Shown: positions 19,249-44,000 of the stretch, one piece after another
Layout: each line of letters begins with the position of its first letter
How positions within the stretch are numbered: the stretch's first letter is position 1
From: Ecdyonurus torrentis
Taxonomy: Eukaryota; Arthropoda; Insecta; Ephemeroptera; Heptageniidae
Length of the DNA: 64,000 bases
NCBI GenBank assembly: GCA_949318235.1
Contig: OX439137.1
Coordinates: 4,067,789-4,131,788 of the forward strand
Direction of reading: 5' to 3'
Made by a program: the position numbers and the translations under genes
Notes under the pieces: model-generated
Database searches by the model: none
Told to the model about the DNA's origin: nothing
What the model saw: the letters and a program-made list of their open reading frames with translations, nothing else

Positions 19249-19272
19249 GTAAGTATTAATAGCTATGTACTG

Positions 19273-19370
19273 TACATAGCATAGCATATAGCATAGCATA
19301 GCATAGCATAGCATAGCATAGCATAGCAAAGCATAGCAAAGCAAAGCAAAGCAAAGCAAACCAAAACATA
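19273..19370 (+). repeat. GCATA/GCAAA pentanucleotide array (intron 1 of orphan exon)
   Basis: Short array starting 25 bp after the splice donor, first GCATA then GCAAA units. It is the truncated twin of the array in copy D. Confidence 0.95.
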
Positions 19371-19647
19371 GCTCTAAATATTTTAAATATTACTATATAA
19401 GTTAAATGTTTAGATTAGAGTTACAAAAATTTGACGAGACGAATATAATGTGGCATATTATGGTACTGTACTAAACTAAGAAGATGTAAATTACTACATA
19501 TAAAATCTAATTGCAAGTACGTATACGTAAATATAAACTTACTGCAATGGAACTCACGAAGTAAAAGCTTCCATTAATGTTTACAAGACCACCACGGTTC
19601 TCCAAATTTATTTCTTCTGTGTCTGCTGGTGTTGCTGTAAAGAATGA

Positions 19648-19715
19648 ATAAATTATAGACGCCTTTCACATCATTGCGCTTTGACGCCATGTTTGTGGTG
19701 CCTAATGCATTGGCC
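19648..19715. repeat. R9 fragment
   Basis: ATAGACGCCTTTCACATC and CCATGTTTGTGGTGCC match the end of R9. Confidence 0.6.
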
Positions 19716-19779
19716 TGCTGCTCAATGTAAGTGACTTTTATACTCCATTTTTTTTAAATATAACACTTCACCTGATAAG

Positions 19780-20130
19780 TTAAAGCCATAGACCAGATAA
19801 AACCACATGTGCTTTTTAATAAATAAAAACGAAATGGGATCTTCAAAACTGATGACAATTTTTACCAGAATGTTAATGTAGCCCCACGAGAGAGCGTGAA
19901 AAAACTGTAAAGTATGCAATTTGCGTGAAAATTCATGTTTATGACGTCAGAAACATGCAATAATTAGTTGAAAATGTTATGCAGGTTGCATAAATCGAAT
20001 TTTATAATCTCTGCTACGGGGCTACTCTTGGGTTTTAAGACAAACTATTAACTAACGTCATTTATGTAAATCCCATTAAGTATTTTGTGATATATATGCA
20101 TATGTTTTTCTCTATGGTCTATTCCTTTAA
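19780..20130 (-). mobile_element. R2 MITE in inverted lectin C intron 2
   Basis: Full-length, reverse orientation, at the same intron position as the copy at 39045, so inserted before the inverted duplication. Confidence 0.9.
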
Positions 20131-20672
20131 ATAAAAGTTGCTAATGTAGAACGCATCACTATACTCAAAAATGTCAAATGCATGGATGATCAAACATGTA
20201 ACAAATATATAAAGAATTAATCCAAGAAATTGCAAAGTTTTTAGAATACTTACTTACATCCTGCTGCTGAAAAAGGTAGAGTGTAAACTGGAAATAAGAA
20301 TGATTTTTTATTAAATAAATGAATTTAATTATAAATTCTAAATAATTGATTAATACTTAAATGGTAACGCTGCTATATAAAGATAAAAAATATAAGTTAT
20401 AGGGACAAAATTACGTATTATATTTCATAATATGCATTGTTATGGTATAAGACGCCAAATGCAATATAAATATATGCAATATAAATTCAAGTAAGATATT
20501 TTCAAATTAATATAAATTTTGGAATTATACTTTTTTTAAAGCAATGATTTTTTCTTTTACTAATGGTTATGCAATAAATGTTATGTAATAATTTATGCTA
20601 TACTTAGTTATATAACATTTTATTAATGATGTTTATTTGGAACAGCATAATTTAATTATGCAGTACAATATC

Positions 20673-39387: not shown

Positions 39388-39399
39388 GGAATATGAAGG

Positions 39400-40190
39400 A
39401 AATATATTTTGCAAGCACTTAATCTGGCCTCAATCTGCAACGTAGTTAAATATATCTGATTTTCAATTTGTGTTTATTAACCCTTTTTTTTTTTTTTTTA
39501 ATATTTTATTCAAAAATAAAATTTAGTATTTTGTCTACTTGTATTTTTGAATAACAATATAATAACAATAATAATGCAGTTTCTATTAAATAACTGGTAC
39601 TGGATTATTCTCACCTTCCCTCTGAATCAAGTAGAATTCCGGTGTTAGTATTATAGAAGGAAAAATAAAAGAACTCATAATAATAATAATTTAATATAAA
39701 GAACATCATTTTTCTATCTTCACTGACCACTGAATTTATAAACTAAATTGCCTGTAAATAGTCACGTGGTAAAATAATTAGTTACAGTGGCGGGCGGCGG
39801 GCTATTTGCCATTCGCGCATCTATTGTGAGGGTCCAATTATATTTCTGTCCCCGGGCGAAAAAAAAAAAAAAAAAAAAAAAAAGGGCTGCCACTGATATT
39901 GTTTAATTTATTATATATACACTTTTTAAAGTATAATTTTACTTGTGTTGCAAAATTAAAATAAATATCTTACGTTTTGTGATGGAAATAAAAATACAGT
40001 TATTGTGTTTTCCCCCTTCAGTTACAACGTATGTAAAGTGATGTAAATTTAGTGTTGTTTTTAAATAAAAATATTTTTTAATTTAATTAACATGGAATAA
40101 TTTTTGTTTTCGATAAAAATGTGGACCTGTATATACTCAGGTATTTTCAATAAGATAAAACAAAAATCGTGATTTTATTTTTGTACGTGT
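39400..40190. other. Pseudogene F interior where exon 3 is missing
   Basis: Holds AT-rich sequence, a poly-A run at 39860-39882 and TTATTA repeats. No exon 3 homologue was found. Confidence 0.6.
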
Positions 40191-41015
40191 TTCAGAGATA
40201 AATCATAATGAATCCACCCAAGCTAGTAATGATATAGGAATTAAATTAGCTTCACTTCAAATTGAAAGTAAAACGGAATAATATCACACATTACCTTGAT
40301 ATTACGTAAAATCTGTAACTACATCGCAGCATATTTTTAAATAAATGGGTGGTAAAAATATATCGAAATGCTGCATTTGACTTTATTTGCTTGTAGCTTA
40401 TTCTGACATAATTGGCACAATTTTTTTTTTTTTTTTTTTTTTTTTTTTTTGCAAAATAATACAGCATTACTGTAAAATTAAAAGTTCCCATGTCGATAAT
40501 ACAATAAAAAATCAATAGTATTAGTTTACTTAGAATTTTCCGACTAAATTGTTTTCATTATTTTATCGTACTACTTTACTGATATACAAAAAGTAAAACT
40601 CATCAAAGCTAGCAAATTTCAAAAGATAAAAACTAAATATTATAAATGTCATCATTTTATTATTATTATTTTTTAAACTTTGAACATCTGATTTTAACTA
40701 TTACTTTTGCAAGTCATTAAAAAGTAACTGTAATATGAAATTAATAATATTTTTAAGTCATTTTATTGAGAAATAAGTATAGTTTCAAAAGTAAATATAT
40801 AAACAAGTAACAAGGGATGTGTGATATATTTATTTAAAGAAATAATATACATATTGTTAGCATTATACTGCGTCTATTTTCTTTTTGTTTTCTGAAATTT
40901 TTTTTTTTCTTGCTAGGTAATAATATTTTCTCCATGAGTTAAATTTTTATCTATTTATTTTATAGATAAGTAAAATTCATCACAAAACTTTAATTTCAAT
41001 ATGATACAACAAAAA

Positions 41016-41026
41016 TATATATAAAG
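41016..41026 (+). promoter_or_regulatory. TATA box of lectin G
   Basis: TATATATAAAG, 68 bp before the ATG at 41094. The shared box and spacing suggest co-regulated promoters across the array. Confidence 0.6.
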
Positions 41027-41093
41027 ATTAAAGTTATAATGAATTGAGACATTTGAATTAAAAGTTAAATAAAACCTTATACATGCAGTTACT

Positions 41094-44000
41094 ATGAAGA
41101 CTGTTCTAATTTTTGTGTGTTTAAGTTTGTGCACAGTGAGTATAATATAATGAAGTACAAAGCTCAGAATAGAATAGAATAGAATAGAATAGAATAGAAT
41201 AGAATAGAATAGAATAGAATAGAATAGAATAGAATAGAATAGAATAGAATAGAATAGAATAGAATAGAATAGAATAGAATAGAATAGAATAGAATAGAAT
41301 AGAATAGAATAGAATAGAATAGAATAGAATAGAATAGAATAGAATAGAATAGAATAGAATAGAATAGAATAGAATAGAATAGAATAGAATAGAATAGAAT
41401 AGAATAGAATAGAATAGAATATGAAGCATAATTATAAAAGCGTAGCGTAGCATCTAAGAAAAAAGTAACAAAAAACTTGGTGTATGCGGATGACGTCATA
41501 TTTATTGCGCTTGGAGGCCATACTGGAGTAGTGAATAACATTGCTCAGCATAGGCCAAACTTCATTTAAGCCAATTTTCTTTGGGAAATCGGTTCATTTT
41601 TTGTTATTGTCATTTTTCTCACATACTTGAGATACTATAATTTAACCTATTTACAGCATCAATGCTCTCAAAAATATTGCATAGTGTTTTTTTACTGGCA
41701 AAATGATTTATTGTCCTATGCCACCCATGTTATTGAGTTATCCAACTTTAACATGAATGCATAGACCCTATAACATATATTAATATAAAAATTATCAACT
41801 TCACTTAATATTTATTTTGGATAAAATGCAGTTATTTTATATCGTTGCTATATCATACAAAAGGATATTATTTAGCCATTAAAATTTAAAACTTACATCT
41901 TTTATCTCAACATTTCATCTTTTGCCTCCATATAAGTATTAACCCAAATATTATATACTATTAATTTCACAAAACGTATACAGTACTATAAATATATAAA
42001 CCTAACTATACTTTATTGATAACTTTCATTTAGGCTGAGTTGCTAAAAACTACGAATTTTTTATATAATATATATTATATATTATATATATATTATATAT
42101 ATATATATATATATATATATATATATATATATATATATATATATATATATATATATATATAAACATTCTTTTATTTATTTCCAGTTTACTGAACTTTCGT
42201 TTGCAGCAGACCGTAAGTATTTAAAAAAGTTTTCATTGTTTTCAAAAAAAAATTTTGCATTTATTTTTGATGCGTTGGATTGTTCATGCATTTGATATAA
42301 TATTATAAATTTGAGTAGTAATGCCATTTATATTTCTGACTGATTACAAGCCTTCTTAAGGGCTGTATAGATGGCTTGTATCTCAAAATTTAAAAAGAAA
42401 ACTTTGAAACTTTATTAAGTCATATGAAAGTTAATACTTATAATAGTAACAGCCAGGGGTGTAGTGGAGGGATGGCGCGGGATGGCGGCGCCATACTTCG
42501 TGAAATTGAATTTTTGAATCGCCATGCCTCGTGAAATTTTAAAAAGGCGAAAAGGTGCGATTTTATTTGTGTTCATTAGAAAAATTTGAAAATAAAATCT
42601 GAGAAAAACAGAAAAAGAGAAAAAAGTAAAAAAAAAAGTTATTTTTTTCTTTGGTTTTACTTTATCTTTTTTCTTTCATCAAATTTGCAGGTAATTGTCA
42701 ATAAGTAACCTTTTTAATTTTTCTATATATGATACAATTTGGTGAGGCCAGGATTATTGAATTCTATTGTGAATCATGAAAGGAAAGGAAGCTGAAGATT
42801 TTTTCAAATACTTTCTAACTCTTTCTCATTGTATCTTTCTCTCTCTCTCTCTCTCTCTCTCTCTCTCTCTCTCTCTCTCTCTCTCTCTCTCTCGCTCGCT
42901 CTCTCTTCCTCACATGAACGGGGGGGCGCACTATGATAGAAGCGAATTATGTTAGAAGCGAATTATGATAGAAACGAAATATGATCGACAATGTTAAATT
43001 CCCTATCTCGAGGTAGGTACGCGCAGGTAGCTAACCTTGCTTGCTCGCACCTATACGGTCATTGTTATTTTTAAGTGCGAACGACAAAAGTAATTTTGAA
43101 CATTTCGCGCGATTGAGCGCGATTCCTTCTTCTTATAAATATTGCAATAGTATGTATATTACAATGCAGGTGTCAATCAGTGCCATCGAGCATCCACGCT
43201 ACACACCTGACGCGCCGCTCCTATTGTTAAAAAAAGGAGTGCGCGCAAAACAGATTCGAACATAATTCGCTTCTATCATCGTTCGCTTCTATCATAGTGA
43301 TACTGCCCACATGAACATGTCCTAACATGATGGTGACTTTTGGACATACGTTACTTTGAAAACAATAAAAATACAGAAAAATACACTTCTACCTGAATAA
43401 GTAAATGTATGAATCTCGTAAAAAAATTTGATAATCCTTTAGTAAAAATTGACTTAAAATCCTCTTAGAAAAAAAAATCAAAGAATTTTAAAAGCAATGT
43501 GAAGGTCAAGCAAAAAAAAAAAAAAAAAAAAAAAAAAGCACCTGAATTTTCTCTCTTCCCCTTAATATTTAAATTAAATATGAAGAAGGGATGAAAAAGA
43601 AGGGGCTATTTTAATTTTCCCCAATTTTTTTTGGCAAGTAGCACCACTTCAGTATTCACTAGTCAGTTGGTGCTGGAGGATGACCCATAGTAAACAGTCA
43701 GTGACATTTTAGTGCAGCATTATATACAAATTATGTACATTAGCATACTTATATTCCAGCTAATATTTTAGATATCTGTTGCCTAATTCATAAAAAATAT
43801 ATATACTCTATTTATTAAGTTAAATATGATATTTCTATATTTATAGATATAGTAATATTTTTTTTATAACAATTTAAGCACGAGAACCTTAATTGAATCA
43901 GGTAATTAATAGCACTAAATGTAGCAAGTGAATTTTAATTTTAAAAAGTGCATCAATGAAAGATGACAGTCCCACTAGCATCGAGGTCGAGCGTAGCTTC

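What the first reader, a model, noticed from the sequence alone, without database searches (positions are those of the whole stretch)
19249..41421. Different pentanucleotide arrays at the same intron position in paralogous genes
The first introns of the orphan exon and copies C, D, E, F and G each carry a 5-bp tandem array within about 4-37 bp of the 5' splice site. Units differ: GCATA/GCAAA/GCATG, TATAG/TATGG, AGTAC and AGAAT. Copies A and B lack long arrays, though B has a short TAGCATAGCAT. The period stays at five while the unit changes, and within an array units occur in homogeneous blocks. This suggests a length-5 seed next to the donor that mutates and is then homogenised, or a function linked to intron 1.
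Basis: partly seen in the sequence, partly recalled or inferred. Interest (0 to 1): 0.75.

Follow-up and report, generated by a model that had tools for sequence, protein, structure and literature searches.

The report
Inherited, drifting pentamer arrays in introns
A cluster of duplicated lectin genes in a mayfly carries five-base repeat arrays just inside the first intron, most likely one ancestral array copied with the genes whose repeat unit has since changed one letter at a time, so they record how such repeats evolve rather than showing a known function.

Summary
In detail: six period-5 arrays begin 4-36 bp inside intron 1 of C-type-lectin (CTL) copies. The genome is the mayfly Ecdyonurus torrentis, chromosome 10. 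In 264 kb I found 16 exon-1 copies: 10 of 13 in one exon-1 clade have arrays, 3 of 13 have none (one clearly decayed), and 0 of 3 in the sister clade have one near the donor. Four array-bearing copies left of the window are mainly AGCAT. The seven units form one single-substitution network, and all six linking steps also occur between blocks of single arrays elsewhere in the genome. AGCAT arrays are not equally common at random: 6 of 29 loci sit in 86 kb of 503 Mb. A cadherin family shows the same pattern. Best reading: one inherited intronic microsatellite with unit turnover by point mutation plus slippage. Repeated seeding at the donor, or a required function, is less likely: L4, L5 and B keep their exons without arrays. 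A genome-wide donor-proximal bias is an untested lead.

The parts
4713..4754 (+). Copy A exon 1 coding part (MKTPVLVCFLSFCT), sister exon-1 clade, no array near the donor
10400..10441 (+). Copy B exon 1 coding part; intron 1 holds only TAGCATAGCAT; exons 3-5 recognisable
   Evidence: remnant not above background
19207..19248 (+). Orphan exon 1 (duplicate of copy C exon 1), donor at 19249
19275..19372 (+). Orphan array AGCAT/AGCAA; the duplication shared with C ends within it
20676..21077 (-). Copy D array, gene orientation GGTATx37, AGTAT block, AGCATx5; first unit is the donor's own +4..+8 AGTAT
21081..21122 (-). Copy D exon 1 coding part, donor at 21080; exon 3 is the last exon found before the orphan's array
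23852..23893 (+). Copy C exon 1 coding part, donor at 23894
23920..24471 (+). Copy C array in blocks: AGCAT, AGCAA, AGCATx20, GGCATx29, AGCAT, AGCAAx23
30994..31035 (+). Copy E exon 1 coding part, donor at 31036
31071..31339 (+). Copy E array, AGTACx53, pure
37054..38047 (.). Terminal-inverted-repeat element inserted in copy F exon 1, flanked by TA
   Evidence: read by eye
38077..38497 (+). Copy F array GGTATx42, AGTATx29, AGCATx9; first unit is the donor's AGTAT (donor at 38073)
41094..41135 (+). Copy G exon 1 coding part, donor at 41136
41166..41421 (+). Copy G array, AGAATx51, pure, followed by AGCGT/AGCAT-like units

Best explanation
The arrays are one inherited intronic microsatellite. 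An AGCAT-type pentamer array arose just downstream of the exon-1 donor in an ancestor of one clade of a secreted C-type-lectin family and was copied each time the gene was duplicated on chromosome 10 of Ecdyonurus torrentis. Each copy then evolved by replication slippage (unit gain and loss, block expansion) and point mutation: a unit with one changed base (AGCAT to AGTAT, AGCAA, GGCAT or AGAAT; AGTAT to GGTAT or AGTAC) was amplified and displaced the old unit, giving blocks or a wholly replaced array. Some copies lost the array by decay. In D and F the array reaches the donor, so the donor's +4..+8 AGTAT is its first unit. Shown: positions, units, blocks, co-location with exon 1, duplication relations, the one-substitution network and the same unit neighbours within single arrays. 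Inferred: the single origin, slippage as the engine, the direction of steps, and lack of function.
For: Arrays begin 4-77 bp inside intron 1, on the sense strand, in 10 of 13 copies of one exon-1 clade and in 0 of 3 of the other; the split has 100/98 support and is compatible with the coding tree. AGCAT is the main or an important unit in L1, L2, L3, L6, C and the orphan and persists as the 3' block of D and F. L5 keeps 8 AGCAT/AGCAA words in its first 250 intron bases; 0 of 3,724 background windows have as many. The seven units are linked by single substitutions, as are 759 of 100,000 random AT-rich sets of seven; for the four main units 1,887 of 100,000. All six steps seen between blocks of one array elsewhere: AGCAT/AGCAA (L040), AGCAT/AGAAT (L045), AGCAT/GGCAT (L054), AGTAT/AGCAT (L056), AGTAT/GGTAT (L083), AGTAT/AGTAC (L061). 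Cadherin-like paralogues L080, L082 and L083 (88-91% in their longest alignments) share an array at one intron site with different unit mixtures. D and F share block order at 95% identity with changed block lengths.
Against: The exon-1 tree is short (120 columns) with 8 of 11 inner branches open, so gain and loss within the clade cannot be ordered, and the root is only inferred. E has no AGCAT/AGCAA word in the first 500 bp of intron 1 and AGTAC arrays are widespread (110 edge matches, control 3), so E could be a new birth. Remnants in L4 (112 of 3,724 windows as rich) and B (438 of 3,724) are weak, and array-less A has as many words as B. The unit-network odds treat units as independent draws and were computed after seeing them.
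Confidence: 0.78

Rival explanations
1. Repeated independent births seeded by the donor: the 5' splice site GTRAGTAT contains AGTAT, which is itself one of the seven units and one step from four more, and slippage there starts a new array in each gene.
For: In D and F the donor's AGTAT is in register as the first unit. AGCAT, GGTAT, AGTAC and AGAAT lie within one substitution of AGTAT. Another lectin-like exon (L043; Lectin_C 18.7 bits, under the cut-off of 22.6) ends at a donor-like GCAAGTAT followed almost directly by an AGCAT array.
Against: In the other eight array-bearing copies the array starts after a spacer (+13 to +77). Lp1 and Lp2 have GTGAGTAT and GTAAGTAT donors and no array. Of 20 AGTAT loci fetched, none shows an exon and donor just upstream on the unit strand. 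Antisense donor-proximal arrays (cadherin, R, L045, L056) cannot come from a sense AGTAT.
Confidence: 0.1
2. The arrays are kept by selection because they act on intron 1, for example on transcription or splicing of the lectins.
For: First-intron, donor-proximal position; sense orientation in all ten array-bearing copies; long arrays in copies with recognisable exons (L1-L3, L6, C, E, G).
Against: L4, L5 and B keep recognisable exons 1, 3, 4 and 5 without a long array, and Lp1, Lp2 and A show none near the donor. Unit and length vary, and arrays also persist in the broken copies D, F and the orphan. No expression data were available.
Confidence: 0.07
3. Gene conversion or unequal exchange among neighbouring copies, rather than simple vertical inheritance, spread and homogenised the arrays.
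For: The copies are clustered, orphan/C and D/F are recent duplicates, and one duplication end falls within an array.
Against: The copies have different units (AGTAC, AGAAT, GGTAT), which frequent exchange would have equalised.
Confidence: 0.1
4. Array lengths or blocks are assembly artefacts.
For: Long arrays are hard to assemble; the L1 array runs into a stretch of N, whether gap or masking is not known.
Against: HiFi assembly at 67-fold coverage, QV 51; D and F, separately placed, agree in block order.
Confidence: 0.03

Closest known systems
RFC1 intronic pentanucleotide repeat (human; PMC10689911, abstract and section list read)
   Same: A period-5 array at a fixed place where the repeat motif itself varies by small changes on a common haplotype, with pure and interrupted configurations.
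   Different: There the motif varies among alleles of one gene and some motifs cause disease; here it varies among paralogues in a gene cluster and no effect is known.
SpTransformer immune gene cluster of the sea urchin (PMC10887614, abstract and section list read)
   Same: Clustered, duplicated genes with short tandem repeats and segmental duplications; here one duplication ends within an array.
   Different: SpTrf repeats surround the genes and instability was measured; here the arrays are inside intron 1 and instability was not measured.
Microsatellite pairs associated with segmental duplications in insects (PMC3878106, abstract and section list read)
   Same: Microsatellites at the ends of duplicated segments in insect genomes.
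   Different: That is a genome-wide statistical association; only one duplication end was seen in an array here.
Insect C-type lectins (mosquito mosGCTL, PDB 9t9z and others)
   Same: Host gene product: copy E matches Pfam Lectin_C and, by sequence, mosGCTL-1 and mosGCTL-6 best in the PDB, with E-selectin close behind.
   Different: The finding concerns the intron array, not the protein.

Membership tests
Intronic pentanucleotide microsatellite | Head-to-tail period-5 array within an intron | tested here: met
   intron inferred from conserved exon 1, donor and later exons, no RNA data
Intronic pentanucleotide microsatellite with motif switching (RFC1-like) | Motif variants related by small changes at one site | tested here: met
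   across paralogues, not alleles
Intronic pentanucleotide microsatellite with motif switching (RFC1-like) | Length or motif polymorphism between individuals | not testable with these tools
   one haplotype searchable; alternate haplotype and reads are public
Intronic pentanucleotide microsatellite with motif switching (RFC1-like) | Phenotypic effect of some motifs | not testable with these tools
   no expression or phenotype data
C-type lectin domain genes (host genes) | Pfam Lectin_C above curated cut-off | tested here: met
   copy E 28.5 bits and type II copy B 45.2 bits against a cut-off of 22.6; the other copies were not scanned
Tandem-repeat-associated unstable immune gene cluster (SpTrf-like) | Duplication breakpoints in tandem repeats | tested here: inconclusive
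   one duplication end (orphan/C) falls in an array; others not mapped

The most novel reading that the evidence does not exclude
Pentamer arrays in this genome arise or persist preferentially just inside introns, next to 5' splice sites, on either strand: besides the CTL cluster, a cadherin-like family (3 paralogues), another lectin-like exon (L043) and four other apparent genes (L016, L045, L056, R) show it. The 5' end of introns would then be a mutational hot spot for array birth or growth, and in D and F the splice donor itself has been drawn in as a repeat unit.
Probability: 0.15. Interest if true: 0.65.

Novelty: new member of a known kind. Interest (0 to 1): 0.4.

Why it matters
A single intronic array copied into at least ten paralogues gives a natural series for how a pentanucleotide repeat changes its unit, the process behind motif switching at disease loci such as RFC1, with duplicates at different divergences (98%, 95%, older) as a rough clock. 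If the donor-proximal bias holds genome-wide it would point to a mutational process at intron 5' ends.

Tried and rejected
Rejected: six independent arrays (two pairs are duplicates). Rejected as a general rule: arrays lying just after a donor on the unit strand. Of 20 AGTAT loci none, and of 22 non-CTL AGCAT loci two (L016, L043), showed an exon ending at a donor-like site shortly upstream (for the hexamers; the exon was judged by eye). Donor-like hexamers at L044, L066 and L072 were not counted because no exon was seen there. Antisense donors turned up at L045, L056, R and the cadherin-like family, so the wider question is open; no mechanical count was possible because no gene annotation is held here. 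Right flanks were seen for 16 of the 22 AGCAT loci and 18 of the 20 AGTAT loci (L061's array filled its stretch, L074's flank reads N).

Led nowhere: protein homologue search with copy E (15 candidates, none at E <= 0.001). Literature searches for donor-proximal or paralogue-shared pentamer arrays and for mayfly lectin families: only listings were seen, and nothing listed describes this. A whole-genome count of CTL genes by protein, and genome-wide counts for AGAAT and GGTAT, were not obtained: the protein and AGAAT searches did not complete and GGTAT was never asked. Not tested: expression, splicing, polymorphism, related species (none held).
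Full report
What was checked. The window is part of chromosome 10 of the mayfly Ecdyonurus torrentis (ieEcdTorr1.1): the lengths of the eleven large contigs seen here equal the eleven chromosome lengths in Table 2 of PMC10665603 (part 1 of 3 of its text read; contig lengths). The genes are small secreted C-type lectins: copy E matches Pfam Lectin_C with 28.5 bits and type II copy B with 45.2, cut-off 22.6; the best PDB sequence matches are mosquito lectins, with E-selectin close behind.

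The arrays are real. Searches place them at 19275-19372, 20676-21077 (minus-strand copy D), 23920-24471, 31071-31339, 38077-38497 and 41166-41421, starting about +27, +4, +27, +36, +4 and +31 from the donor. In gene orientation the units are AGCAT/AGCAA (orphan), AGCAT/AGCAA/GGCAT (C), GGTAT-AGTAT-AGCAT (D and F), AGTAC (E) and AGAAT (G). In D and F the donor's own +4..+8 AGTAT is the first unit. Units are far more clumped than in shuffles in C, D and F (0 of 5,000 shuffles each have as few runs); L6 is like its shuffles (34 runs, mean 32.4) and ends in an alternating AGCAT/AGCAA decamer, and L2 and L3 are too uniform to test.

They are not independent. The orphan and C lie in a 98.4% duplication (17507-19372 and 22155-24012) whose end falls in the array; D and F share a 95% stretch. 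In D and F the blocks come in the same order with different lengths (37, 32, 5 and 42, 29, 9 units).

The family beyond the window. Joining 100 kb on each side gave 264 kb with 5,200 N. A relaxed exon-1 pattern found 15 copies, and F with its split exon makes 16. Of 12 period-5 segments of at least 35 bp, 11 lie in ten CTL first introns (L2's is in two pieces), and 10 overlap the first 150 bp of such an intron, against 0 of 43 period-2 and 0 of 14 period-4 segments. The twelfth, R at C21:4198656-4198921, lies about 60 bp inside an apparent intron of an unrelated gene on the opposite strand. In the four new copies the first run of identical units is at +77 (L1), +56 (L2), +13 (L3) and +52 (L6); L1's array runs into N.

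The trees. The exon-1 tree (15 rows; F left out; 120 columns) separates 12 copies from Lp1, Lp2 and A with 100/98 support; 8 of 11 inner branches are open. In the larger clade, F included, 10 of 13 copies have arrays (L1, L2, L3, L6, orphan, C, D, E, F, G) and 3 do not (L4, L5, B). The coding tree of exons 3-5 (13 copies) splits type II (L1, L2, L3, L5, B) from type I with 100/100; arrays occur in both types, and the two splits are compatible. A single origin before the type split is the simplest reading, but the root is inferred.

Loss and remnants. L4, L5 and B retain recognisable exons 1, 3, 4 and 5. L5 has 8 AGCAT/AGCAA words in the first 250 bp of intron 1 (0 of 3,724 background windows have as many), L4 has 3 (112 of 3,724), B has 2 (438 of 3,724) and array-less A also has 2: only L5 is a clear decayed array. 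G's array is followed by AGCGT/AGCAT-like units. E shows no such trace.

Genome background. A left-edge pattern for AGCATx5 gives 49 matches (control, the pattern read backwards, 2), which I group by hand into 29 loci; 6 are in the CTL cluster (C21:4005819-4092097, 86 kb) and 23 elsewhere. AGTATx5 gives 73 matches (control 18) and AGTACx5 gives 110 (control 3, listing cut short), so these units are widespread; AGAAT and GGTAT were not counted. Of the 23 other AGCAT loci, 22 were read (20; L016 and L018). They too show blocks with one-step changes: AGCAT/AGCAA at L040, AGCAT/AGAAT at L045, GATAT/GACAT/GGCAT/AGCAT at L048, AGCAT/GGCAT at L054, AGGAT/AGCAT at L055, AGTAT/AGCAT at L056; among AGTAT arrays, AGTAT/AGTAC at L061 and AGTAT/GGTAT at L083. 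Unit turnover by single substitutions is thus a wider habit of pentamer arrays in this genome, not special to lectins.

A second family. Three cadherin-like paralogues (L080, L082, L083; Pfam Cadherin 26.9 bits for one L082 exon, just under the cut-off of 28.8) share an array at the same intron site. The longest pairwise alignments, which include array, are 88-91% identical. The first perfect run is at +49, +39 and +21 from the donor, with units AGTAT, GGTAT (L083) and AGCAT (L080) on the strand opposite to the gene. This is the same story in an unrelated family.

Donor proximity as a lead. Apart from CTL, arrays near an apparent exon and donor were seen, by eye, at L016 and L043 (sense) and L045 and L056 (antisense) among the 22 AGCAT loci read, and at one cadherin-like family (3 loci) among 20 AGTAT loci, plus R, which came from the flanking stretch and not from those samples. 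Right flanks were seen for 16 of the 22 and 18 of the 20. Without annotation I cannot give an expectation, so this stays a lead.

Mechanism. One inherited array, point mutation of a unit, amplification of the mutant by slippage, and sometimes full replacement or decay. The steps AGCAT-AGTAT, AGTAT-GGTAT, AGTAT-AGTAC, AGCAT-GGCAT, AGCAT-AGCAA and AGCAT-AGAAT are each a single substitution; random AT-rich sets of seven units are connected in 759 of 100,000 draws, and sets of four (the main units) in 1,887 (computed after seeing the units). Donor-seeded births and function are possible but less supported, as set out under the rivals.

Comparison. The nearest known process is motif switching at the human RFC1 intronic pentamer (PMC10689911, abstract). 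Immune gene clusters with tandem repeats (SpTransformer, PMC10887614, abstract) and microsatellite-linked duplications in insects (PMC3878106, abstract) are parallels for the cluster. No paper listed or 97 has a title or abstract start that describes paralogue-wide pentamer arrays at a donor; the papers themselves were not read.

Noticed in passing
window 19249-21122: Orphan exon 1 and copy D are joined tail to tail: the C-like duplication stops inside the array and D's exon 3 follows in inverted orientation within about 200 bp, a rearrangement junction at a microsatellite.
   Followed up: partly
window 37054-38047: Element with terminal inverted repeats (CCCAGGTACCAGAAAG...) flanked by TA interrupts exon 1 of copy F.
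   Followed up: partly
window 8493, 24524, 36325, 41478, 60328 and L046, L051: A MITE-like repeat containing ...AACATTGCTCAGCATAGG...; copies lie just 3' of the C and G arrays, and two genomic AGCAT arrays (L046, L051) appear to lie within it.
   Followed up: partly
window 55582-58922: Non-LTR retrotransposon reading frame with endonuclease and reverse-transcriptase domains (Pfam on 55582-58620).
   Followed up: no
window 16783-16995: Two 111-bp repeats that look like ankyrin-repeat coding on the minus strand (name recalled from the translated motif, no search made).
   Followed up: no
L081 (C4:3972601-3974600): Array GTATAx17-GTGTAx98-GTATAx20 in a stretch that looks like a serine-protease gene (name recalled, no search made).
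   Followed up: no
C21:4199433-4200833, right of the window: About 1.4 kb of CTCTCC/CTCA/TCAC tandem repeats close to array R.
   Followed up: no
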